In this document: positions 27,519 through 41,826 of the stretch, piece after piece
Layout of the letters: every line of letters starts with the position of its first letter
Numbering within the stretch: the first letter of the stretch is position 1
Assembly (NCBI GenBank): GCA_015229005.1
Contig: JADGCL010000002.1
Location: 1 to 64,000 of the forward strand
Origin: Magnetococcales bacterium
GTDB lineage: Bacteria; Pseudomonadota; Magnetococcia; Magnetococcales; JADGCL01
Direction: 5' to 3'
Length of the DNA stretch: 64,000 bases
Notes under the pieces: model-generated
Told to the model about the DNA's origin: nothing
The model's input: only the letters and a program-made list of their open reading frames with translations
Databases searched by the model: none
Position numbers and translations under genes: made by a program

Positions 27519-28550
27519 TCACTTGCCCGGGGCCGCCGCCTTCGCCGCCGCAAGCTCCGCGTCGATGGCCGTCTTGAACTCCTCCAACGGCAGGGAGCCG
27601 ACCATCGAAATGCCGTTCACGAAGAAGGTCGGGGTCCCGGAAACCCCCAGCCGCTCACCCTCTTCCCGGTCGGCCTTGACCCGGGCCGCCTGCGTGCCGC
27701 CGTCAAGACAGGCATCGAACTTCGCTGCGTCCAAACCGGTCGCCTTCGCCAGCGCCTTGAGATCGGGAACCGTGAGCTTGTTCTGCTGCTTGAACATCGC
27801 GTCGTGGAACGGCCAGAACTTCCCCTGCTCCTCGGCGCACTGACCGGCCTCGGAAGCCTTGGCCGCATTCGCGTGAAACGGCATGGGGAAATGGCGAAAG
27901 ACGATCCTGATCCGATCCCCGTAGTGGGCCAGAAGCTGCCCGAGGACATCCTGAACACGGCTGCAATAGGGACATTCGAAATCCGAGAACTCGACCACCG
28001 TCACCGCCGCCTGCGCCCCGCCCTTGACCGGGGTCATCGCCCCCTTGACCTCCACCCGCGGCGGTTCGGGCGCCGTCAGGAGAATTTCGGCGTTGTACTT
28101 CTGCTCAAGGCGACCGATGACCTTCCCCCAGGCGGCCCGCTCCCCCTGAAGCTTCAGGAATTTCCCGACCTTCGCTCGCAACTCGTCGTCCACATTGGGA
28201 AATTTCTGGGCATTGGCCTTGAGAAACTGATCGACCTCCGACGATTCCACCGGCTTCGCCGTCCTGGCGATCTCCTGCTCGAGATAGGCGTCGGCGGTCA
28301 TCCCCAGGGACTTCGCCTCCAGCTCCAGGAGATGATCGGCGACCAAGTCCCGCGCCTGATCGTGGCGCAACTGGTAGAGCTGCCGATCCACCTCGTAGCG
28401 CTTCATCCCCAGCGCCTTGTCCACCTCCTCCACGGTGATCTGCTTCCCGCCCACCTTGGCCGCCAGGGTGCCGGCTTGCAGGGGAGCAGCCACGGAGAGC
28501 GCCAACCAGGCGCCAACCGCCAACATCAGGTACCGCTTCGATCGCATCAT
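27519..28550 (-). CDS. DsbA-family (thioredoxin_4) oxidoreductase with SurA-like N-terminal region
   Basis: Signal-like N-term MMRSKRYLMLAVGAWLALSVAAPLQA; VVEFSDFECPYCSRVQDVLGQLLAHYGDRIRIVFRHFPMPFHANA; VSGTPTFFVNG. Confidence 0.85.
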   Translation of the reverse strand: MMRSKRYLMLAVGAWLALSVAAPLQAGTLAAKVGGKQITVEEVDKALGMKRYEVDRQLYQLRHDQARDLVADHLLELEAKSLGMTADAYLEQEIARTAKPVESSEVDQFLKANAQKFPNVDDELRAKVGKFLKLQGERAAWGKVIGRLEQKYNAEILLTAPEPPRVEVKGAMTPVKGGAQAAVTVVEFSDFECPYCSRVQDVLGQLLAHYGDRIRIVFRHFPMPFHANAAKASEAGQCAEEQGKFWPFHDAMFKQQNKLTVPDLKALAKATGLDAAKFDACLDGGTQAARVKADREEGERLGVSGTPTFFVNGISMVGSLPLEEFKTAIDAELAAAKAAAPGK

Positions 28551-28579
28551 GGGTTGGGTAGTCCTCGAACTCTCTCTCG

Positions 28580-29011
28580 TCAGCGGCCGTACACGCTCTG
28601 GGCCCGTTGTTGGAACGCCTGAACCATGTCCTTGGTAACCTTGGCGAAAAGTGGCCCAAGGGTGGCATTGAGGAGGCGATTCTTGAACTGAAACTTGATC
28701 TCGAAATCCACCCGCGTCCCGCTCCCGACGGGGGTAAAGAGCCAGGTACTCTCCAGGCTCTGGAAAGGCCCCGACTCGAGTTGGATATCCACCCTCTGCC
28801 CGGGAATCAGGCGATCGATTGTCCGGAAGGTCTCCCGCATCCCCTTGATGGCGAAGGTCATCTCCGAGCGGAAACTGGTCCCGGTCTCCTCCGACTTCGT
28901 CGCCTTGACGCACCAGGGGAGGAATTCCGGGTAACGATCCATGTCCACCACGAGATCGTACATCTGCTGCGGCGACCAGGTCACGACCGTCGAGGCCTCG
29001 CGATGGATCAT
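28580..29011 (-). CDS. RatA/COQ10-like START-domain protein, copy 1
   Basis: STVVTWSPQQMYDLVVDMDRYPEFLPWCVKA...STWLFTPVGSGTRVDFEIKFQFKNRLLN; ATGA overlap with the next upstream gene. Confidence 0.85.
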   Translation of the reverse strand: MIHREASTVVTWSPQQMYDLVVDMDRYPEFLPWCVKATKSEETGTSFRSEMTFAIKGMRETFRTIDRLIPGQRVDIQLESGPFQSLESTWLFTPVGSGTRVDFEIKFQFKNRLLNATLGPLFAKVTKDMVQAFQQRAQSVYGR

Positions 29012-29463
29012 GATGCCCCGCCCCCTTTCCCCCCGTCGCCGTAGATCGCACGCGCCCGGTCGCGGAAAGCCACCAGCATCTGTCGGGATATGTGCGTGAA
29101 AACCGGCCCCACCATGACCTCCTTGACCCGGTTGCGAAAACGGAAATTGATGAAAAAATCGACCCGGGTCTGGTTGCCGACCGGGGTGAAGTGCCAGGTG
29201 CTGGCCAGGTACTGGAACGGCCCGCTCTTCAGGTTGATCTCGACCCGGCTGCCCGGCACCACCGTGTCCAGCGTCTGGAAGGTCTCGCGGATGCCCTTGT
29301 AGGCCACCGTCAGCTCGGCCATGAACTGCCCCGGCTGGTGGTCGAAGGCCCGGGTCTTCACGCACCAGGGCAGAAACTGGGGATAGCTCCCCACGTCAAC
29401 CACCAGATCGTACATCTGGGTCGCACTGAACGGGAGGATCTCACTGAGGCGGATCTGGGGCAT
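29008..29463 (-). CDS. RatA/COQ10-like START-domain protein, copy 2
   Basis: SEILPFSATQMYDLVVDVGSYPQFLPWCVKTRAF...STWHFTPVGNQTRVDFFINFRFRNRVKE; start ATG at 29463 inside longer ORF. Confidence 0.87.
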   Translation of the reverse strand: MPQIRLSEILPFSATQMYDLVVDVGSYPQFLPWCVKTRAFDHQPGQFMAELTVAYKGIRETFQTLDTVVPGSRVEINLKSGPFQYLASTWHFTPVGNQTRVDFFINFRFRNRVKEVMVGPVFTHISRQMLVAFRDRARAIYGDGGKGGGAS

Positions 29464-29683
29464 CGGGCTTTCGGCGGCGCGGTCTCGATGCGACCTTATC
29501 GTCGCGTTTCTCCAAGACTTCTTCAAAGCAAAGGGGGCGCAAACCGCACGCCCCGGACGAAGGCGCCGGACCCCGGGCGGAGAGTTCTTCGCGGAGGGCT
29601 TCATCCAGCACGTTGTCAACGGGCTCCCAATCCAATATCCTGTGAGGATATTCCAAACCGGCGTCCCGGTCCATGCTCCGCAT
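29441..29683 (-). CDS. Hypothetical small protein overlapping start of RatA-like gene
   Basis: ORF MRSMDRDAGLEYPHRILDWEPVDNVLDEALREEL...; position and codirectionality only. Confidence 0.35.
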   Translation of the reverse strand: MRSMDRDAGLEYPHRILDWEPVDNVLDEALREELSARGPAPSSGACGLRPLCFEEVLEKRDDKVASRPRRRKPDAPDPPQ

Positions 29684-29811
29684 GAGGCCCTTTCCTCCTC
29701 CCCCGGAAATCGGGGGCGGGGTGTGATCGGACCCCCACGCGGAAACCCGGAACCTGCGGGCGCCCGGTTGGCTACACTCGCAATGAAGGACTCATCAAGG
29801 AGGCTTGGAAG

Positions 29812-30816
29812 ATGACGATTCGTATCGGTGTCAACGGGTTCGGCCGCATCGGCAGGATGGTTGTCCGCGCAAAGCTCGGCAACTCCAAGTACGACAACAT
29901 CGAGTTGGTGGGCATCAACGACCTCGGCGCCAAGGACACCATGGTCCACCTGCTCAAGTACGACTCGGTGGCACTGCGCCTCAAGCAGGAGGTCCACGCC
30001 ACCCCCGAGGGGATCTCCATCGACGGCAAGAACATCCCCATCCTCTCGCAGCGCAACCCCGCCGACCTGCCCTGGGGCAAGATGGGCGTCGACTACGTCG
30101 TCGAGTCCACCGGCTTCTTCACCAAGCGCGACGCCGCCGAAGGCCACATCAAGGGCGGCGCCAAGCGCGTCGTCATCTCCGCCCCCGCTACCGGCGATGT
30201 CAAGACGATCGTCATGGGCGTCAACGAGAACGAGTACGACCCCAAGGCCCACACCGTCCTCTCCAACGCCTCCTGCACCACCAACTGCCTCGCCCCCTTC
30301 GCCAAGGTGATCCTGGACAAGTTCGGCATCAAGCGCGGCCTGATGACCACCGTCCACGCCTACACCAACGACCAGAGCATCCTCGACTTCCCCCACAGCG
30401 ACCTTCGCCGCGCCCGCGCCGCCGCCGTCAACATGATCCCCACCAAGACCGGCGCCGCCGCAGCCATCGGCCTCGTCATCCCCGCCCTCAAGGGTAAGTT
30501 CGACGGCGGCGCCGTGCGCGTCCCGACCCCGAACGTCTCCATCGTCGACGCGGTCATGGAAGTCGAGAAGTCCACCTCCGTCGAGGAGGTCAACGCCGCC
30601 CTCAAGGCCGCCACCAATCAGTACCTCGGCTACACCGACGAGCCCCTGGTCTCCATCGATTTCCAGGGCGACCCCCGCTCCTCCATCGTCGATGGCGGCT
30701 GCACCAAGGTCATCGGCGGTCTCTCCGTCAAGGTGATGAGCTGGTACGACAACGAGTGGGGCTATTCCAATCGCGTCCTCGACCTGATCCAGCACATCGC
30801 CTCCCAGGAGAAGTAA
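29812..30816 (+). CDS. gap: Glyceraldehyde-3-phosphate dehydrogenase
   Basis: MTIRIGVNGFGRIGRMVVRAKLG; SNASCTTNCLAPFAKV catalytic Cys motif. Confidence 0.98.
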   Translation: MTIRIGVNGFGRIGRMVVRAKLGNSKYDNIELVGINDLGAKDTMVHLLKYDSVALRLKQEVHATPEGISIDGKNIPILSQRNPADLPWGKMGVDYVVESTGFFTKRDAAEGHIKGGAKRVVISAPATGDVKTIVMGVNENEYDPKAHTVLSNASCTTNCLAPFAKVILDKFGIKRGLMTTVHAYTNDQSILDFPHSDLRRARAAAVNMIPTKTGAAAAIGLVIPALKGKFDGGAVRVPTPNVSIVDAVMEVEKSTSVEEVNAALKAATNQYLGYTDEPLVSIDFQGDPRSSIVDGGCTKVIGGLSVKVMSWYDNEWGYSNRVLDLIQHIASQEK

Positions 30817-30826
30817 GCCTCCGACC

Positions 30827-33800
30827 GTGGCCAACGGCCCCGAGTCCGCAACCGAAATCGATCGGAATCGGCCCCCCGATTCCGATGCGGTTCGGGCCAA
30901 TCTGGACCAGACCTACGTGGAGCGGGTCGCAATCGACCCGCTCCACTTGGTCCTCACCCTCCCGGTCGCGGACTTCTTCGGCCTCTCCCGCGCCCTCGAA
31001 CACCTCCTCCTCGAACTCAACCACCCGCTGCGCAATTGGCCCCTCCTCCTCCCGGAACTCAAGGGCTTTCTCCTCCAGAACAGCAACCGCTACCTCCCCC
31101 ATCCCCGGGGACCCGAGTGTTTTACCCTTTTTTTTGGATTTTTCCTCCAGGCCCTGGCCGAATCCACCCGACCCCAGACCCGCGCCGAGGCCCTCGTCGC
31201 CCTGACCGCGGCGCTCGATCGCCTGGCCGGACTCATGGACGGCAACCTGGCCACCCCCTACGGCGCCGTCTGGGAAGATATTTTCTCCAGGCTCGCCGCC
31301 CTGCCGACAGAGGAGCAACGTCTCCTCGCCCAGAGCCATTTCCCCCTGGCGCGGATCATCCGTACCCTCCTGGAACACACCGGCGACAGCGCCCCCATCG
31401 CCCTCGCCCCCATGCACTCCCTCCTGGGTGTCTCCTGCCGAACGACCTACGATCACTGGCTCACCCAGTTTGACCCGGGCGTCTTCGCCGAGCCCGCCGC
31501 CACCGCCTTCGAGCGGATCCGCCACGACGCCCTGAGGCACGATGCCCAGAGGCTCGAACGGCTCCTCGCGGCGCCTCCCTCCCGGGCCAATCTCTTCAAA
31601 CTGGCGGCCCTGCCCTCCTATCTTGACATCGTCCGCGGTTACCGCCAGGCAGTCGACCAGCTCGGCGAGCCGGCCGGAGGCGAGGCCTCGCCGGCAGCGG
31701 CCCGCTTCAGCGAAAGCCGCAAGCTCCGCTTCATGTTCCATATCCTCGAGATGGAGTCCCTCGACCTCATCCACGAGGAGACCCTGAAAAAGGTCAACCT
31801 CAGCCTGGTCCATCTCGTCGAACTCAAACAATCCTTCGGGCGGATGGAGGAACTCTTCCTCTCGACCTTCGCCTTCCTCAAGACCAACGTCGTCCGCTAT
31901 CCCCACACCGCCCTCCAGTGCATCGAGGTCCTGGGTACCGAGGTCTTCCGCCGCGAAAGCAGCATCCTCATGGAGGCCTTCCTCGACCAGGTGGTCCGCT
32001 TCGGCTTTCAACACGCCCGCATCCAGGGAGTGGGCGCCGACTGGCAACCCCGGGTCAACCCGGCGCACCTGTATAATATCCGCGTCTGGCTCAACCTCAT
32101 CATCCAGCGGCCCAAGTGGTGTTCGACCCTGCTGTCGGCCCTGATCCTCAATATCAAGCTCACCGGCGTCCTCATCCGCGACACCGATCTCTTCCAGAAA
32201 GAGATCACCGCCCTCCTCAACAGCGAGTTTGCCCCGGTCACCAACCTGGTCAAGCAGTTTTGCCGTCTCCTCCCGGTCTATTACAACGAGATCGGCGCCG
32301 AGGGCGAGATCCGCGAGGTCTCCACCGAGCTCGACGAAATCCACCGGCGGGCGGATCGCCTGGTCCACTTCCTCCGCAAGCAGTGCCATGTGGAGAGTAC
32401 CAATCTCACCGTCGAGCTTGCCCGCGCCGCCCTCCACTTCTGGCGAACAGGCGACAAGACTCCCCTCGCCGGTGTCATCGCCCCACCCCTCTGGGCCTCC
32501 CTCGAGACCGGCAGCGATCTCTTCGACCGGGTCCACGCGCTCACCGTGCGCCTCTTCGCGGCCCTCGACCTGGCCGACGAGACCGCACTCCTCACGGTCA
32601 CCCCCGAAAGGATCGCCGCCACTCTCGCCCCGTGGGAGGATTCCGATCCCGGCGAACGTCGGCGCCTCTTTCTCCTCTGCCGGCTCTATCACCTCCTCCA
32701 CGCGAAATACAACCTGGGCGCCCAGGGGGTGCGGGAGGCCCTCGCCGGGGTCCACGATCTGAACCTGACCACTCGGGAGAAGCTCCTCGACCTCCTCGAC
32801 CAGGGCGTGACCGGGCTGCCCCGCCTCGAGGCCCTGCTCGACACCCTGGAGGAGTTGCGGGCCGTCATCCACTCCCCGGAACGGTTCGAGGCCCGCGAGG
32901 AGCTCTACCGCAAGCGTCATCTCACCGTCGACATCCCCTCGGTATACGGGCGCTATCTCGAACGGAAATTCGACGCCCTCTCCCTGACCTTCCGCCTGGA
33001 GAACCTGGCCAGCGTCGAGTTGGAGGCGCTCGTCCGGCGAATCCCCGAGGAGTACATCTCCCAGGCGATTTTTTTCCGCGTCGCCAAGTATCTCAAGATC
33101 TTCCTCCGCGCCCTCGCCCTCGACGGCATCACCTCGCGCAAACTGACGAACCTGGGGAAGGTCCTCGATCGAACCCTGGAACTCAATCTCTTTGCCTTCG
33201 ACCAATACCGCGACATCTTCCAGGGGTTTTCCCAAGCGGTGACGGACATCGTCACCACCTACTTCACCAGTTACCACCGGGACAATCTGGCGATCATCGT
33301 TCCCGAGATCCCCGTGGAAGCCCTGACCCGCCGCTTCGCACCCCTGCGGACGGCGGAGCTGCCGGCCTCGGTCGAACGGATGAGCGAGGCCCTGCTGCGG
33401 GATCTCATCGGCGAGGCCTTCGGTCTCCAGGCCCTCGACAATTTCGTCGCCCGGCTGCAGAAGGCGCTTACCCGCCAGGAGGGGCGTCTCGCCCCGGAGC
33501 AGCTCGACCGCCTGATGAGCTATGACCCGGGCAAACTCTTCTGTCCGATCCACCACCCGACCGACCGCACCCGCAATCTGATCCACCTGGGGGCCAAGGG
33601 CTTCAACCTGGTACAGATGGCCGAGGATGGCCTGCCGGTCCCCGCCGGGGTCATCGTCACCACCGAGTATTTCCGCTGCCACGACCTCGTCGCCCAATTC
33701 CCGCCGGCTCGGCGCGAATTCGCGGCGATGTTGCGCCACGAGGTGCATGGCCTCGAGAGAGAGACCGGACTCCATTTCGGCTCGACCACCAGGCCGCTCC

Positions 33801-35110
33801 TCCTCTCGGTCCGGAGCGGCGCCCTGATCTCGATGCCGGGCATGATGCATACCATCCACAACGTCGGCCTGAACGAGGAGATCGTCGCCGGGCTCGCCCA
33901 CGCCACCGGTCGCCCCTTCTTCGCCTGGGACAACTATCGCCGCTTCATCCAGTCCTGGTCGATGACCCACGATGTCGACCGCCAGGTCTTCACCGCCCTG
34001 ATGCGCGCCGCCAAACACAGTCACGGCGTCCGCAAGAAACACGAGTTGAGCCCATCGGCGATGGCCAACCTGGCCAGGCAGTACCGGTGCGCCGCCCAGG
34101 GCCTCGGGGTCGAAATCCCCGACAACCCCTGGGAGCAGCTCACGGCGGCGATCCACCGGGTCCTCGCCTCCTGGGAGAGCGACAAGGCCGGGGAGTATCG
34201 ACGCCTGATGGGCGTCTCCCACCGTTGGGGAACGGCGGTCGTCCTCCAACGGATGGTCTTCGGCAACGTCCATGAGCAGGCGGGCAGCGGCGTCGTCTTC
34301 ACCGCCCACCCGCATCGCAAGCTCGACCGGGTGGTCCTGTGGGGAGATTACACCATCGGCGACCAGGGAGAGGACATCGTCGGCGGCCTGGTCTCGACCC
34401 GGCCCATCTCCCTGGAACAGTGCCAGTATGACCGCCGCCCCCCGGCCTCCAGTCTGGAACGCTGCTTCCCGGAGATCTTCCAGGCCCTCCTCAAAGTCGC
34501 CGAGCAGCTCATCTACACCCAGGGGTGGAACCCGCAGGAGATGGAGTTCACCTTCGACGGCCCCTCGACCGAAAACCTCTACATGCTGCAAACCCGGGAC
34601 ATGTCCTCGGCCTCCCGGCTCAACCCCCTGGCCGGCGTCTTCGTCGAGCGGCCGGAACTCGCCACCGCCCTCCTCGGCCAGGGGATCGGGGTCAGCGGCG
34701 GCGCCCTCTGTGGCCGGGTCGTCTTCTCCGCGGCGCACATCGAACGTTTTCGCCGCGAGGGGGAAAAGGTCCCCCTGATCCTGGTCCGCTACGATACCGT
34801 CCCCGACGACATCCGCGAGGTCGTCCTGGTGGACGGACTCCTCACCGCCCGCGGCGGACAAACCTCCCATGCCGCCATCGTCACCGCCCGCCTGGGGAAG
34901 ACCTGCGTCGTGGGCTTCGAGGAGCTGACCCTCTGGGAGGGCGATGAGCGTTGCACCATGGGAGGGGTCACCATCCGCCCCGGGGAGATGATCGCCATCG
35001 ATGGGCGGCGGGGACGAGTCTATCGCGGCGAGCAGCCGGTGACGCACGCGATCGTCGGGACCTCGGCTGCCGACCTGGCGGCGATGGATGAGGCAGATGA
35101 TGGCGACTGA
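30827..35110 (+). CDS. PPDK/PEP-synthase-related ATP-grasp + phosphohistidine-domain protein with ~900-aa uncharacterised N-terminal region
   Basis: Residues from ~905: [80 protein letters not shown]; near C-term [21 protein letters not shown] (swivelling-His motif). Protein ends shortly after, so no PEP-binding barrel. Confidence 0.88.
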
Positions 35111-35301
35111 ATCGGCCCTGGGCCCGTGCCACCCCCGAAGGCCCCGGATGGACCGTTGTCAAGGCCATCCCACGGACTATCATGGCCGTTCCCATGACTT
35201 TTCAGGACCGTTTTTCATTCGATATCGGTCAATCTGATCAAAATTTCCGGTTCTGTACTTCGGTGAACGCCTACCATTCGATGAAGTGCAAGGGAGCGCC
35301 C

Positions 35302-36285
35302 ATGAAGATCCAACTGAACGGCGAGGCCTTCGAGTTGCCGGACGGGAGTACGGTCCACGAGCTCCTGGTCCGTCTGGAGTTCAACCCACAGCGGGTGGCA
35401 GTCGAACGAAATCTGGAAGTCGTCTCCCGACAGGGATACCATGAGGAACGGCTTCAGGAAGGAGACCGGATCGAGGTGGTTCATTTCATCGGCGGCGGGG
35501 AGGCAACCTTGACAGAAGATCCTTTGGTGATTGCCGGCAAGAGCTATCGAAGCCGGCTCCTGGTGGGAACAGGCAAATACAAGGACTTCGAGGAGACGGC
35601 ACGGGCGATCGAGGCCTCGGGGGCGGAGATCGTCACGGTCGCGGTGCGGCGGGTCAACGTCAGCGACCCGAAGGCGCCGATGTTGACCGATCACGTCGAT
35701 CCGCGACGCTACACCTATCTGCCCAATACCGCCGGTTGCTTCAACGCCGACGAGGCGGTGCGCACCTTGCGCCTGGCGCGGGAAGCGGGTGGCTGGGATC
35801 TGGTCAAGCTCGAGGTTCTCTCCGATCCCAAATATCTCTGGCCGAACAATCCGGAGACCCTGAAGGCCGCCGAAATCCTGGTCCGGGAGGGGTTCAAGGT
35901 GATGGTCTACACCACCGACGACCCCTACCTGTGCAAGCGCTTCGAGGAGATGGGGTGCGTGGCGGTCATGCCCCTGGCGGCGCCGATCGGCTCCGGGCTG
36001 GGAGTGCGCAACCCCTTCACCATCCGCATCATCATCGAGCAGGCCAAGGTCCCGGTGTTGGTCGATGCCGGGGTGGGATCGGCCTCGGACGCGGCCATCG
36101 CCATGGAGTTGGGGTGCGACGGCGTCCTCATGAACACGGCGATCGCCGGGGCGAAACATCCCATCCTGATGGCGAGCGCGATGAAAAAGGCGGTCGAGGC
36201 GGGTCGGGAGTCGTTCCTGGCGGGGCGGATCCCGAAAAAACTCTACGCCACCGCCTCAAGCCCCCTGGATGGGACATTTTTCTGA
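35302..36285 (+). CDS. ThiS-ThiG fusion (sulfur carrier + thiazole synthase)
   Basis: [41 protein letters not shown]...[11 protein letters not shown] (ThiS with internal GG) followed by [47 protein letters not shown]...[33 protein letters not shown] (ThiG). Confidence 0.95.
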
Positions 36286-37372: not shown

Positions 37373-39082
37373 TCACCGAAGCGCCAGCGGCGAAAGGTCG
37401 AGTACCCGGGAGATCTCGTCCAGGCTCGTCGATCCCTCGCGCACGCGACGGACGCCATCTTCGGCCATCGTCCCGAGCCCCTTGCCGGCGGCAAGCTTGA
37501 GAAAGGCGCTCTTGGGGGCGCCGCCGGCGATCAGATCGTCGAATTCGTCGTCCATCTTCAGGACCTCCATGACCGTCATCCGCCCACGGAAACCCATGCC
37601 GAAGCACCGTTCGCAACCGATGGCCCGGTAGATCGTCGCTTTCTCGTTTGCACCGAAACCGAGGATACGCCGCTCCAAATCGTCGGGAGGGTACCCCTTC
37701 TTGCAGTAGCGGCAGAGGCGACGCACCAACCGTTGGCCAAGAATGCCGATGATATTCCCCGCCAGAACCCCCGGAGTGACGCCGATATCGAGGAGTCGCG
37801 GCAGGGCCCCGAGCGCCGAGTTGGTGTGCAGGGTCGACAACACCTGGTGGCCGGTCATGGCCGCCCGCAGCGCCATGTTGGCAGTATCCTCATCGCGGAT
37901 CTCACCCACCAGGATGATATCGGGATCCTGACGCAGGATCGAGCGGATGCCATCGGCAAAACCCAGATTGGCGGTTGGATTGACGGTCGTCTGCCGGACC
38001 ATCTGCATCGGATACTCGACCGGATCCTCCAGAGTCATGATGTTGACCTGCTCGGTATTGAGATAATTCAGCATCGCGTAGAGCGTGGTCGTCTTGCCGC
38101 TGCCGGTGGGGCCAGTGACCAGAATGATCCCCTCGGGCCGGGCCATCATCAGCTTGAGGTTGACAAGAGTCTCCTCCGCCAGCCCCAACCCTTCGAGAAG
38201 AAGCCCCCCCCGGCTGCGGTCGAGAATGCGCAGGACGATGTTTTCACCGTAGGTGGTCGGCTGCGACGAGGCACGGAAGTCGATGGTGCTGTTGGCGAGC
38301 GAAAGGGAAAAACGACCATCCTGCGGCGCCCGCGTCTCGGCGATGTTCATCCCGGCCATCACCTTGAGACGAACGAGCAACCCCGAAAGAAAATCGCGGT
38401 GGAGGCTGCGCACCTCCAGCAGCACCCCATCGATCCGATAGCGAATGCGAACATAACCCGCTTCGGGCTCGATGTGGATGTCGGAAGCCTCCCGGCGGAC
38501 CGCCTCGGCAAGTAGCGAGTCCACCAGCCGGACCATCGGATGGCTGAATTCACCCGTCTGGCTGGCAAGGCTCTCCAGATCCACCACCCCGGTTTCGATC
38601 TCCCGGAGAATGCCATCCAGGGAGAGTTCGACGGCGTAGTACTTGTCGATCGCCCGAGAGATCTCACTCTCGCCAGCCAGAACCCCCTTGACCGTGACCC
38701 CGTGCTTCATCCGCGCCTGGACCTTGTCCAGGACCCCGACATCCAGGGTATTGGCCATGGCCACGGTGAAGGTCGAGGTGGCGGCCTCCCACTTGACCGG
38801 AAAGACCCGATAGCGGTCAACCAGGACCTTGGGGAAATCAGCAATCACCGCCGGGTCGATGCGGGTGCTGTCAAGAGAGATGCTCTCCTCCCCCAGTGCC
38901 GCCCCGAGGAGGTCACGCATCACCGGTTCGGGGACGAACCCCAGGGTGACAATGATCCGACCCAACTGGGCGCCGCTTTTTTTCTGCTCGGTCAGGGCAA
39001 TGTGGAGCTGATCGTCGGAAATGAAACCGCCCTCGGTCAGCAGCTCACCGATCCGACGCCTGGGCTTGCCGGCAGGGACCAT
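37373..39082 (-). CDS. mshE: GspE/PilB-type secretion/pilus ATPase, MshE-like
   Basis: VTGPTGSGKTTTLYAMLNYLN (Walker A), VGEIRDEDTANMALRAAMTGHQVLSTLHTN (Walker B/His box), CRYCKKGY...CERCFGMGFRGR Cys pairs. Confidence 0.93.
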   Translation of the reverse strand: MVPAGKPRRRIGELLTEGGFISDDQLHIALTEQKKSGAQLGRIIVTLGFVPEPVMRDLLGAALGEESISLDSTRIDPAVIADFPKVLVDRYRVFPVKWEAATSTFTVAMANTLDVGVLDKVQARMKHGVTVKGVLAGESEISRAIDKYYAVELSLDGILREIETGVVDLESLASQTGEFSHPMVRLVDSLLAEAVRREASDIHIEPEAGYVRIRYRIDGVLLEVRSLHRDFLSGLLVRLKVMAGMNIAETRAPQDGRFSLSLANSTIDFRASSQPTTYGENIVLRILDRSRGGLLLEGLGLAEETLVNLKLMMARPEGIILVTGPTGSGKTTTLYAMLNYLNTEQVNIMTLEDPVEYPMQMVRQTTVNPTANLGFADGIRSILRQDPDIILVGEIRDEDTANMALRAAMTGHQVLSTLHTNSALGALPRLLDIGVTPGVLAGNIIGILGQRLVRRLCRYCKKGYPPDDLERRILGFGANEKATIYRAIGCERCFGMGFRGRMTVMEVLKMDDEFDDLIAGGAPKSAFLKLAAGKGLGTMAEDGVRRVREGSTSLDEISRVLDLSPLALR

Positions 39083-39084
39083 GA

Positions 39085-41826
39085 TCAGGGGATCCGACGC
39101 GACAGGACGGCGAGGCGGCGTACCACCGCCTTGTGATCGAAGACCGGGCCGGACTCGCCCCGAAGATGACGCAGAGCCAGACGATAGTAGCGGATGGCCT
39201 CCCGGTTCTCCTCCAGATGGTCGAGACTCACAGCCAGATTATAGAGAATCTCAGGATTTTCCCGATCCAGGCGCAGGGCATCGGCAAAGCTCGCCCGGGC
39301 CTCCTCCCAGCGACCGCTGGCAACATGGATGTTGCCCAGCGCAAAGTGCAGATGGATCGCATCGGGATGATCGGCAAGGAGCATCTTCAAACGATTCTCC
39401 TCGGTATCCGGATCACCGCCGCCATCGAGACCGAGGAGCGCCGCCTCGGCCACGGTATTATGGGGATCGTCGCGGAGAATTCCCTGGTAAAGACGCCGGG
39501 CCCGGACAAGATCCCGTTGCCGGGCAGCCAGGGAGGCCATCCCGAGACGGGCCTCGATGTTGTCGGGTTCAGCCTCCAGGATGGTCCGAAAGTGACCCTC
39601 GGCCTCCCCCAATCGCCCTTCTCGAAAGGCCTCCGCTCCCTGATCCAGCCGTTCCCAGAGCGACTCCTGCCGACGACTCTCCCGCACCACCCGCAGACGA
39701 TCGGCATCTCCCTCCCCGGCCCTCCGGCTCTCCGCAGCGGCAAGAGAAGCCGTCCCCCCGGACTGCGGTTCCGGGGCATCCTGGCCTCGGCCCGACACAC
39801 CACTCCCGGGTGAGAGGCGAAAGGCCGAGGCCCGCTCCTCCCGCGGGGGCAATACACCGTCGGTCGACCCCTTCCCAACGCCAGGGATCGGCGCCGGCTC
39901 AGGTGATGCCGGCCCTGTCGGCGGCGCAGGTGAAACAACGGCCACCGCAGTCGACTCCGGAGGGACGGCAACCGACCCCGCAGGGGGAGAAGCAGCCGGC
40001 GCCGCAGGGGGAGAAGCAGCAGGCGCCGCAGGGGGAGAAGCAGCCGGCGCCGCAGGGGGAGAAGCAGCAGGCGCCGCAGGGGGAGAAGCAGCCGGCGCCG
40101 CAGGGGGAGTGGCAGCAGGCGCCGCAGGAGAAGTGGCAGCAGGCGCCGCAGGGGGAGTGGCAGCCGGCGCCGCAGGGGGAGTGGCAGCCGGCGCCGCAGG
40201 GGGCGGAACCGGTTCCAATGCCGCCGCCTGCAGTGTCGTCCCGTCACCGCCTTCACCTCCGACCTCACCCTGGGAGGGGGGAGCAAGGGCTTCCCGATCA
40301 CCGGCAACCACCTGGGGCTCGCCACCCGAAGTGGCATCCGCCGCCGGGGAGGGCGAATCCGGGGAGGGTAGAGATCCCGTGGTCCCGCCGGACACCTCCC
40401 TGGCCCGGACCGGGAGGTGCGTCGGTTCGTCGCCACTCCTCCGGAGAGGCCCCGCCATCTCCCCACCGGATTCCAGGGATTCCAGAGCCCGGGTCAAAAA
40501 CAGCCAGGCCCCGACCAGAACGACGACGGTCACCCCGGTACCGGCAAGAAGCCAGGTCAGAAGGTTCCTCTGGCCCCCTTCGCGGCGCTCGGCCTGCAGG
40601 AGACGCCGACCGTCGGCCGGAGCCGGACTTCGACCCCTCCCCTGCCCTGCCACCGGCACTCCCCGCAGCGGCGAAGCGCCCCTCTCCGCCCCGAGAGTGC
40701 TACTCCCCGACGTCCCAGCAATGGACTGGGGACCCGCAGGGGTCGTCGTTCGACCCACCTCAGTGCGCAGAAAGGAGTGGGCTCCCGGCTCAGTCGAGGC
40801 GGCGACCTCTGGCACCAGTGAGCGGGAAACAGCATCGCCCGGACTCTCACCGACCGCTCGACGATCACCCTCACGGCCACTCTCTCGAAAAGGGGATCCC
40901 TCCCCCAGACCGGGAAGGCTCCCGGCGCCCGTCTCCTGAAAAGGGGAGCCCTCTTCCATATCGGATGGGCTCTCCGTGTCCCTCTTCTGAAAAGGGGATT
41001 CCTCCCACCTGCCGATGCCGGGAAGCACCTCGCCGGCGGGAAGTGACGGCAGTGACCGGGAAGGATCCACTGAGGCCGTCTGCTCCTGCTCCACCGCCTC
41101 GAAAGGGATCCTCTCGATCGCAACCACTCGGGAAGTTGCGGATGGAGCCTCGCCGCCATCGTCGGATCCCGGAAAAAGCCGGGGGAGTGTGGGAGGAATC
41201 TCGATAAGCCCAATCCCGTCGGTCTCCGTGCCCATGGCCGAAAAGAGCGGATCGGTGCGCGCCGCAGGAGAGTCTGCCTCCGCAGCGCTCCCGGGAACGG
41301 ACAGCCCGGCGCCAACAAAATCCGGTGGCATCCGCGCCGGCGGGTCGACCAAATCTCCTGCGAAATCGTTCAGGGTGAGATCGGGAGGGGGCTCCTCGTC
41401 ATAACGCTCACCGGATGCCTCCCCATCCCCAATGATGGCCTCGGCGTGGGGGGAGGCGTCCGGACGATGGGCAACCTCGGCAAGGGAAGATGGAGACCCG
41501 GCAAGGGAAGATGGAGACCCGGCAAGGGAAGAAGACTCGGCAAGTGAAGAAGACTCGGCAAGGGAGGGGAACTCGGGGGCAGAGGCGGGATCGGTAAGTG
41601 GAGGGGACCCGGCAAGAGAAAGCGGCTCCGGAACAGAAAGCAACCCGGCAGGGGAAGGGGGCTCGGTGAATGAAGGAGACTCGGCAAGGGAGGGCAACTC
41701 GACGCCCGGAGCAACCAACCCCGCAGGGCTCCCGTCGACAGGAGCCGGCTCACCCTGCCGGCGAGCCGCCTCCCGTTTGCGCCTGGCGCGATCCGCCACC
41801 CGCAAGGTTTCGATCAGGAGGCTCAT
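39085..41826 (-). CDS. TPR-repeat protein with long Pro/Ala/Ser-rich linker, MshN-like
   Basis: N-term MSLLIETLRVADRARRKREAARR; TM LLTWLLAGTGVTVVVLVGAWLFL; C-term TPRs (AEGHFRTILEAEPDNIEARLGMASLAARQRDLVRARRLYQGILRDDPHN); ATGA overlap with secretin gene. Confidence 0.8.
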   Translation of the reverse strand: MSLLIETLRVADRARRKREAARRQGEPAPVDGSPAGLVAPGVELPSLAESPSFTEPPSPAGLLSVPEPLSLAGSPPLTDPASAPEFPSLAESSSLAESSSLAGSPSSLAGSPSSLAEVAHRPDASPHAEAIIGDGEASGERYDEEPPPDLTLNDFAGDLVDPPARMPPDFVGAGLSVPGSAAEADSPAARTDPLFSAMGTETDGIGLIEIPPTLPRLFPGSDDGGEAPSATSRVVAIERIPFEAVEQEQTASVDPSRSLPSLPAGEVLPGIGRWEESPFQKRDTESPSDMEEGSPFQETGAGSLPGLGEGSPFRESGREGDRRAVGESPGDAVSRSLVPEVAASTEPGAHSFLRTEVGRTTTPAGPQSIAGTSGSSTLGAERGASPLRGVPVAGQGRGRSPAPADGRRLLQAERREGGQRNLLTWLLAGTGVTVVVLVGAWLFLTRALESLESGGEMAGPLRRSGDEPTHLPVRAREVSGGTTGSLPSPDSPSPAADATSGGEPQVVAGDREALAPPSQGEVGGEGGDGTTLQAAALEPVPPPAAPAATPPAAPAATPPAAPAATSPAAPAATPPAAPAASPPAAPAASPPAAPAASPPAAPAASPPAAPAASPPAGSVAVPPESTAVAVVSPAPPTGPASPEPAPIPGVGKGSTDGVLPPREERASAFRLSPGSGVSGRGQDAPEPQSGGTASLAAAESRRAGEGDADRLRVVRESRRQESLWERLDQGAEAFREGRLGEAEGHFRTILEAEPDNIEARLGMASLAARQRDLVRARRLYQGILRDDPHNTVAEAALLGLDGGGDPDTEENRLKMLLADHPDAIHLHFALGNIHVASGRWEEARASFADALRLDRENPEILYNLAVSLDHLEENREAIRYYRLALRHLRGESGPVFDHKAVVRRLAVLSRRIP
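39979..40204. repeat. 24-bp tandem repeat, nine units, in the TPR-protein gene
   Basis: cgcagggggagaagcagccggcgc-type units at 24-nt intervals (39979, 40003, ... 40195); encodes PPAAPAAS/T octads on the minus strand. Confidence 0.95.
41479..41700. repeat. Degenerate short tandem repeats encoding SLAESSSLAGSPS-type low-complexity segment
   Basis: Repeated ggcaagggaagatggagacccggcaagggaagaagactcggcaag... Confidence 0.8.

What the first reader, a model, noticed from the sequence alone, without database searches (positions are those of the whole stretch)
30827..35110. PPDK/PEP-synthase-like phosphotransfer protein with a ~900-aa unknown N-terminal region and no PEP barrel, encoded 10 nt behind gap
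Sequence: residues ~905-1400 carry PPDK-type signatures ([65 protein letters not shown] with candidate catalytic His codon at ~34868). Knowledge: PPDK is ATP-grasp/His/TIM-barrel; rifampin phosphotransferase (RPH) is ATP-grasp/Rif/His; glucan water dikinases have the His domain before the ATP domain. The order here (unknown ~900 aa, ATP-grasp, terminal His domain) matches none of them. Inference: a dikinase that phosphorylates something other than pyruvate, with substrate recognition in the N-terminal region; proximity to gap suggests a link to central carbon metabolism.
Basis: partly seen in the sequence, partly recalled or inferred. Interest (0 to 1): 0.78.

Follow-up and report, generated by a model that had tools for sequence, protein, structure and literature searches.

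The report
GAPDH-linked phosphotransfer enzyme family
A 1,427-residue enzyme that is part pyruvate phosphate dikinase and part a previously undescribed helical domain is conserved in Magnetococcia, many sulfate reducers and a few other bacteria, and it nearly always occurs with a particular version of the sugar-metabolism enzyme GAPDH, which suggests a second, unknown way of handling the GAPDH/phosphoglycerate step of central metabolism.

Summary
Window 30827-35110(+) encodes one 1,427-aa protein ("X"), 10 nt behind a type I gap gene. Its C-terminal ~490 aa are a PPDK ATP-grasp plus phospho-His domain with the PPDK catalytic residues kept (His1348). There is no PEP/pyruvate barrel. Residues 1-905 match no Pfam or NCBIfam family and no solved fold, but AlphaFold predicts them confidently (pLDDT 88.6), all helical, with two almost invariant charged patches (452-523 and 691-725). 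X is a conserved full-length family: 45/48 Magnetococcia, 65/198 sampled Desulfobacterota, 0/372 other Pseudomonadota. The window genome and two relatives show no GapX; in all three, ordinary gap sits directly upstream of X. PGK and, mostly, canonical PPDK coexist with X, so X replaces neither. Best reading: a dikinase passing phosphate from ATP via His1348 to an acceptor in the helical domain, most likely 3-phosphoglycerate, coupled to GAPDH. The dikinase core and the GAPDH coupling are well supported; the substrate is inferred and untested.

The parts
29812..30816 (+). gap: type I glyceraldehyde-3-phosphate dehydrogenase (334 aa), first gene of the pair; the only GAPDH detected in this 79%-complete genome
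   Evidence: TIGR01534 419.6 bits against a cut-off of 367.2; only one GAPDH match in G000
30827..35110 (+). X: PPDK-like phosphotransferase, 1427 aa, GTG start 10 nt behind gap
   Evidence: conserved full length in related loci
30827..33541 (+). N-terminal all-helical region of unknown fold (residues 1-905), proposed acceptor-substrate domain
   Evidence: no Pfam/NCBIfam match for this protein; AlphaFold pLDDT 88.6, pTM 0.82; no global PDB fold match
32180..32395 (+). conserved patch 1, residues 452-523 (D452, D454, N487, E492, R496, D503, E504, R508, D510, R517, K518, H521, E523 in 70/70 sequences)
32897..33001 (+). conserved patch 2, residues 691-725 (K696-R697-H698, P704, S705, Y707, G708, Y710, E712, K714, R723 in 70/70); AlphaFold confidence falls below 50 at 697-700
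33566..34621 (+). ATP-grasp domain, residues ~914-1265 (K924, R996, R1038/R1039, E1182, D1183, E1238, E1240, Q1255, R1257)
   Evidence: Pfam PF01326, alignment to PPDK, Foldseek to 1kbl E 1.1e-28
34673..35035 (+). swivelling phospho-His domain, residues ~1283-1403; T1346 is the equivalent of the regulatory Thr453 of PPDK
   Evidence: Pfam PF00391; PDB 2fm4 E 3.2e-21 by sequence and TMt 0.80 by fold
34868..34870 (+). codon of the catalytic His1348 (PPDK His455)
   Evidence: invariant in 22 X and 12 PPDK sequences

Best explanation
X is a three-site dikinase. Shown by sequence and model: a complete PPDK-type ATP-grasp site and a swivelling phospho-His domain, so ATP (probably with Pi, as in PPDK) should phosphorylate His1348 and release AMP. 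Inferred: the His domain swings to a charged active site in the N-terminal helical domain, which replaces the PEP/pyruvate barrel. Shown by genomics: X is coupled to a GAPDH, either the co-inherited GapX or a type I gap in the same operon. Inferred and least certain: the acceptor is 3-phosphoglycerate, giving 1,3-bisphosphoglycerate + AMP + PPi/Pi, which GAPDH (GapX probably with NADPH) reduces to glyceraldehyde-3-phosphate. This would be an AMP-forming bypass of phosphoglycerate kinase for gluconeogenesis, parallel to PPDK or PEP synthase bypassing pyruvate kinase. The same chemistry could run backwards with PPi.
For: Catalytic core intact. No barrel in X, while 34 of 48 Magnetococcia have a separate PPDK-sized barrel protein. 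N-terminal domain confidently folded and carrying two nearly invariant charged patches, one next to a low-confidence (possibly mobile) loop. X and GapX have identical distribution in 198 Desulfobacterota (both in 65, neither in 133; Fisher p 6e-54, phylogeny not corrected), even when unlinked in 14 genomes. All 25 X genomes checked across groups have a GapX. Where GapX is not found (G000, G003, G015), a type I gap is directly upstream of X, so ordinary GAPDH chemistry seems to suffice. GapX keeps the catalytic Cys and His and aligned substrate-phosphate residues, and lacks the NAD-selecting Asp32, with an Arg two positions on. GapX is the only GAPDH found in four small Thermodesulfobacterium-like genomes. 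Gene order gap-X-gapX-pgk-tpi occurs in several lineages.
Against: PGK is present in essentially every near-complete genome with X, including those where GapX is the sole GAPDH, so a bypass is not strictly needed. No substrate, direction or cofactor has been measured. Nothing in the sequence specifically identifies 3-phosphoglycerate.
Confidence: 0.42

Rival explanations
1. X and GapX form a catabolic, PPi/AMP-linked pair: glyceraldehyde-3-phosphate is oxidised to 1,3-bisphosphoglycerate, whose acyl phosphate is passed to His1348 and used to make ATP from AMP and PPi, as PPDK does in glycolytic bacteria.
For: X is far closer to reversible PPDK than to PEP synthase (TIGR01828 376.8 against TIGR01418 72.2 bits); PPDK runs both ways in nature (PMC8100219); same genomic data as the main explanation.
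Against: Many carriers (sulfate reducers, Thermodesulfobacteria, Magnetococcia) build sugars rather than burn them (general knowledge); the GapX cofactor site looks NADP-type, which favours reduction.
Confidence: 0.15
2. X phosphorylates a different small molecule (another phosphorylated acid, or a sugar or glycerate derivative), and GapX acts on its product rather than on 1,3-bisphosphoglycerate.
For: This superfamily has changed acceptor domain before (RPH, HpeHI, PpsAB; PMC4844700, PMC12167813); GapX is divergent, about 30% identical to the window's type I gap, with large insertions.
Against: GapX is the only GAPDH found in four small Thermodesulfobacterium-like genomes, so it probably supplies triose phosphate there; the window genome, G003 and G015 pair X with an ordinary type I gap and show no GapX.
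Confidence: 0.2
3. X is a regulator: the solenoid-like N-terminal region binds GAPDH and the His domain phosphorylates or otherwise controls it according to ATP/AMP state.
For: Fold search of the N-terminal model returns mainly helical-solenoid proteins that bind other proteins, though with TM-scores of 0.2 or less; strict co-inheritance with one GAPDH clade.
Against: The invariant patches are clustered, charged and polar, as in a catalytic site, which a binding scaffold would not need; X also pairs with type I gap.
Confidence: 0.13
4. X is a degenerate or fused leftover of PPDK with no separate function.
For: Homology to PPDK and loss of the barrel.
Against: Catalytic residues kept, full length conserved across groups, 45/48 Magnetococcia carry it.
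Confidence: 0.02

Closest known systems
Pyruvate phosphate dikinase (PPDK, EC 2.7.9.1)
   Same: ATP-grasp and phospho-His domains align end to end (residues 916-1411, E 1.6e-79; Foldseek 1kbl E 1.1e-28); catalytic Lys, Arg, Glu, Gln, Thr and His residues kept
   Different: no PEP/pyruvate TIM barrel (PF02896); ~905 extra N-terminal residues; Asp321 replaced by Glu; separated from the sampled PPDKs by a long branch
Rifampin phosphotransferase (RPH) and two-component relatives HpeHI, CreHI, PpsAB
   Same: same principle: ATP-grasp plus swivelling His domain serving a non-pyruvate acceptor domain, AMP released (PMC4844700, PMC12167813)
   Different: domain order is ATP, acceptor, His in RPH but N-terminal domain, ATP, His here; RPH was not among listed fold matches of the N-terminal region, and RPH scores far lower than PPDK in the core
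PEP synthase (EC 2.7.9.2)
   Same: ATP-grasp and His domains recognisable (TIGR01418 72 bits)
   Different: much weaker match than PPDK; no barrel
Alpha-glucan water dikinases (GWD/PWD)
   Same: large protein with an N-terminal substrate region and dikinase chemistry (general knowledge)
   Different: His domain precedes the ATP domain in GWD, the reverse of X (general knowledge); no carbohydrate-binding module found here
Type I GAPDH / NADPH-using gluconeogenic GAPDHs (relatives of GapX)
   Same: GapX keeps the catalytic Cys and His and the aligned substrate-phosphate residues
   Different: ~410 aa, below the TIGR01534 cut-off (299-343 against 367 bits), altered coenzyme-selecting residues, tied to X

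Membership tests
PPDK | PPDK-type ATP-grasp with Lys22, Arg92, Arg135, Glu323, Gln335, Arg337 | tested here: met
   Asp321 is Glu in 21 of 22 X sequences, Arg337 is Lys in one
PPDK | phospho-His domain with His455 and Thr453 | tested here: met
   H1348 and T1346 in 22/22 X sequences
PPDK | PEP/pyruvate TIM barrel (PF02896) | tested here: not met
   no match in the protein; none in the 79%-complete own genome
PPDK | equivalog score TIGR01828 at or above 843 bits | tested here: not met
   376.8 bits
PPDK | pyruvate as phosphate acceptor | not testable with these tools
   needs an assay
Rifampin phosphotransferase / HpeHI | RIF-binding-domain fold as acceptor domain | tested here: not met
   RPH not among the 50 listed fold matches of the N-terminal model; RPH hits of the second model are weak and cover fewer than 500 columns; RPH NCBIfam 45 bits against a cut-off of 999
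Rifampin phosphotransferase / HpeHI | order ATP-grasp, acceptor domain, C-terminal His | tested here: not met
   His domain is C-terminal, but the extra domain precedes the ATP-grasp
Alpha-glucan water dikinase | His domain before a C-terminal ATP domain; carbohydrate-binding module | tested here: not met
   order is ATP then His; no CBM
Dikinase superfamily (mechanism) | ATP to AMP through phospho-His | not testable with these tools
   residues present; chemistry not assayed
X family (defined here) | N-terminal helical region with patches 452-523 and 691-725, then ATP-grasp, then C-terminal His | tested here: met
   69 full-length homologues aligned with the window protein

The most novel reading that the evidence does not exclude
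X plus GapX is an undescribed AMP-forming route between 3-phosphoglycerate and glyceraldehyde-3-phosphate: a '3-phosphoglycerate dikinase' that bypasses phosphoglycerate kinase, with a new acceptor-domain fold, in Magnetococcia and many sulfate-reducing and related bacteria.
Probability: 0.33. Interest if true: 0.9.

Novelty: new variant of a known kind. Interest (0 to 1): 0.72.

Why it matters
I know of no dikinase at the PGK/GAPDH step of central carbon metabolism, and no paper on one was found in the literature held here. A conserved two-gene module that pairs a PPDK-like engine, carrying a new acceptor domain, with its own GAPDH suggests a further energy-coupled control point in gluconeogenesis of anaerobes and magnetotactic bacteria. 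It would also add another acceptor fold to the dikinase superfamily, and such proteins are easily mistaken for pyruvate phosphate dikinase because only the core is recognised. Two proteins and a spectrophotometric assay would test it directly.

Tried and rejected
X replaces PGK: rejected, PGK is present in all 27 Magnetococcia at least 90% complete and no more than 5% contaminated, and in the genomes where GapX is the only GAPDH. X is the organism's PPDK: rejected for the class, 34/48 genomes have a PPDK-sized barrel protein as well (the other barrel hits are PTS enzyme I-sized frames or fragments); the window genome shows none but is only 79% complete. N-terminal region is a RIF-binding or PEP-barrel relative: no support by Pfam, NCBIfam, PDB profile search or Foldseek. 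The weak profile hit 3zpj (E 0.007) and weak Pfam hits (best E 0.0004, PI4KB accessory domain, 5 of 30 members) look like general helical-repeat similarity and were not pursued. Karyopherin fold hits have TM-scores of 0.2 or less and were rejected as homology. The plasmid search found only ordinary PPDKs through the C-terminal part. A tree of the core separated X from PPDK on a long branch but with UFBoot 70 only, and the intended PEP-synthase-like outgroup dropped out (the tree used some wrong reading frames and is superseded).

Full report
WHAT IS THERE. The window holds, on the + strand, a type I gap gene (29812-30816) and 10 nt later an uninterrupted 1,427-codon gene, X (30827-35110). Pfam sees only PPDK_N (963-1195) and the PEP-utilising mobile domain (1317-1396); there is no PEP-utilizers_C barrel and nothing in residues 1-905. 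The C-terminal part aligns with C. symbiosum PPDK over 916-1411 (E 1.6e-79), but X is far below the PPDK equivalog cut-off (377 against 843 bits). The next frame downstream looks like a ThiS-ThiG fusion, unrelated in function as far as can be told.

X IS A CONSERVED FAMILY. A protein search of 84,980 species genomes returned 80 loci at 33-63% best-segment identity, nearly all one ~1,350-1,450-aa frame except where contigs or frames are broken. Titles are mostly Magnetococcales and Desulfobacterota, with single hits from Acidobacteriota, Bacteroidetes, Bacillota and Syntrophomonadaceae MAGs. In whole-genome searches with the N-terminal profile, 45 of 48 Magnetococcia and 65 of 198 Desulfobacterota (at least 95% complete) have it, against 0 of 372 other Pseudomonadota (one further Desulfobacterota hit at E 1.5e-4 was not counted). 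The N-terminal profile appeared inside a ~1,400-aa frame in nearly every case; the exceptions are broken frames or contig ends.

THE CATALYTIC CORE IS INTACT. In an alignment with 12 canonical PPDKs, all 22 diverse X proteins keep K22, R92, R134/R135, D280, E323, Q335, T453 and H455 (C. symbiosum numbering; the assignment of roles to these residues is from general knowledge). E279 and R337 each have one conservative exception, and Asp321 is Glu (Gln once). The second AlphaFold model (residues 260-1427, pLDDT 87.1, pTM 0.74) matches PPDK structures by Foldseek (1kbl, E 1.1e-28) and the isolated PPDK phospho-His domain (TMt 0.80). So ATP-driven phosphorylation of His1348 is very likely; whether Pi is the co-acceptor, as in PPDK, is inferred from the closer match to PPDK than to PEP synthase (377 against 72 bits).

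THE N-TERMINAL REGION. AlphaFold with 62 aligned sequences gives a confident, almost entirely helical model (pLDDT 88.6, pTM 0.82). Foldseek against the PDB finds only solenoid proteins with TM-scores of 0.2 or less; profile and HMM searches find nothing convincing. Conservation is concentrated: of 83 columns at least 95% uniform in residues 1-905, 28 lie in 451-525 and 18 in 690-726. D452, D454, N487, E492, R496, D503, E504, R508, D510, R517, K518, H521, E523, K696, R697, H698, S705, Y707, Y710, E712, K714 and R723 are identical in 70 of 70 sequences. The K696-R697-H698 stretch adjoins the lowest-confidence internal loop of the model (697-700), as a substrate-gating loop might. I infer an active site for an anionic acceptor; this is not proven.

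THE GAPDH LINK. In the 80 loci, a divergent ~410-aa GAPDH (GapX) lies directly downstream of X, or a type I gap directly upstream, in 33 of 35 fully testable non-Magnetococcales loci and 14 of 24 Magnetococcales loci. The order gap-X-gapX-pgk-tpi occurs in Thermodesulfatator and others. Genome-wide, in 198 Desulfobacterota the genomes with X and with GapX are identical sets of 65 (best GapX hit per genome at least 600 bits; genomes without it peak at 194 bits). In 43 of them the genes are close neighbours on one strand, in 8 convergent, in 14 unlinked (Fisher p 6e-54 without phylogenetic correction). All 25 X genomes chosen through loci from different groups carry a GapX. In Magnetococcia, 42 of 45 X genomes have GapX; of the three genomes without a detected X, one (G039, 99% complete) also lacks GapX. 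The three X genomes without a detected GapX (the window's, 79% complete; G003, 100%; G015, 97%) all have type I gap immediately upstream of X. In total at least ten Magnetococcia from six families have gap directly upstream of X. GapX keeps the catalytic Cys and His, the Thr-Gly and the Arg expected to bind substrate phosphates, but at the coenzyme-selecting position has N-x-G-R instead of N-D, which suggests NADP(H). GapX is the only GAPDH found in four small Thermodesulfobacterium-like genomes (G052, which is T. hveragerdense through L053, and G093, G122, G243), so it probably makes or uses triose phosphate there.

WHAT X DOES NOT REPLACE. PGK is present in all 27 Magnetococcia at least 90% complete and at most 5% contaminated and in the four genomes where GapX is the sole GAPDH. 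A PPDK-sized (about 890-1,025 aa) barrel protein is present in 34 of 48 Magnetococcia; other barrel hits there are PTS enzyme I-sized frames or fragments.

MECHANISM. Shown by sequence: intact ATP-grasp, intact phospho-His domain, conserved charged sites in a domain that stands in for the PEP barrel, strict co-inheritance with a GAPDH. Inferred: phosphate moves from His1348 to an acceptor in the N-terminal domain; the acceptor is a substrate or product of the GAPDH step, most simply 3-phosphoglycerate/1,3-bisphosphoglycerate; the direction is reductive. The precedent for swapping the acceptor domain of this engine is good: rifampin phosphotransferase (PMC4844700) and the two-component HpeHI, CreHI and PpsAB enzymes (PMC12167813) do it with a different, RIF-binding-type domain. 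No paper describing X, GapX or a phosphoglycerate dikinase turned up (only open-licence papers were searched, and the one text hit for 'phosphoglycerate dikinase' is a rice seed proteomics paper).

CAVEATS. Related genomes are not independent, so the Fisher value overstates significance, though the 14 unlinked cases argue for real functional coupling. Substrate, direction and cofactor are untested. Most genomes are MAGs. G045 lacks a detected X although GapX is present; its GapX hit lies in an implausibly long open frame, perhaps a masked contig. G023, the other genome with GapX but no X, is 75% complete.

VERDICT. Real, well conserved, and a new variant of a known kind: a PPDK-type engine with a new acceptor domain, coupled to GAPDH. 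The metabolic role is the open question and is directly testable.

Noticed in passing
window 30728-35047 (-): A 1,439-aa antisense ORF covers the whole X gene; similar antisense ORFs occur in some relatives. Probably a by-product of high GC and codon bias, not a gene.
   Followed up: partly
window 35182-36285 (+): The frame after X looks like a ThiS-ThiG fusion (thiamine biosynthesis), judged from the sequence only.
   Followed up: no
window ~27519-29700 (-): Divergent from gap-X lie two neighbouring RatA/START-like frames and a peptidyl-prolyl isomerase/DsbA-like frame; the same block sits upstream of X in many Magnetococcales loci (clusters 2 and 3), even where gap is not there.
   Followed up: partly
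L063 and L078 (Desulfamplus magnetovallimortis): Two X copies in one genome: one near type I gap, one (longer frame, 1,582 aa) beside gapX. Possible specialisation for the two GAPDHs.
   Followed up: no
G122:C1:682932-685599: X is split by a frame break with internal stops in a Thermodesulfobacterium-like genome whose only GAPDH is GapX: a sequencing error or a recently broken gene.
   Followed up: no
window 39085-41826 (-): A 913-aa frame with a long Pro/Ala-rich repeat stretch and a TPR-like C-terminal part, next to a type II secretion/pilus ATPase-like gene (37373-39082 -).
   Followed up: no
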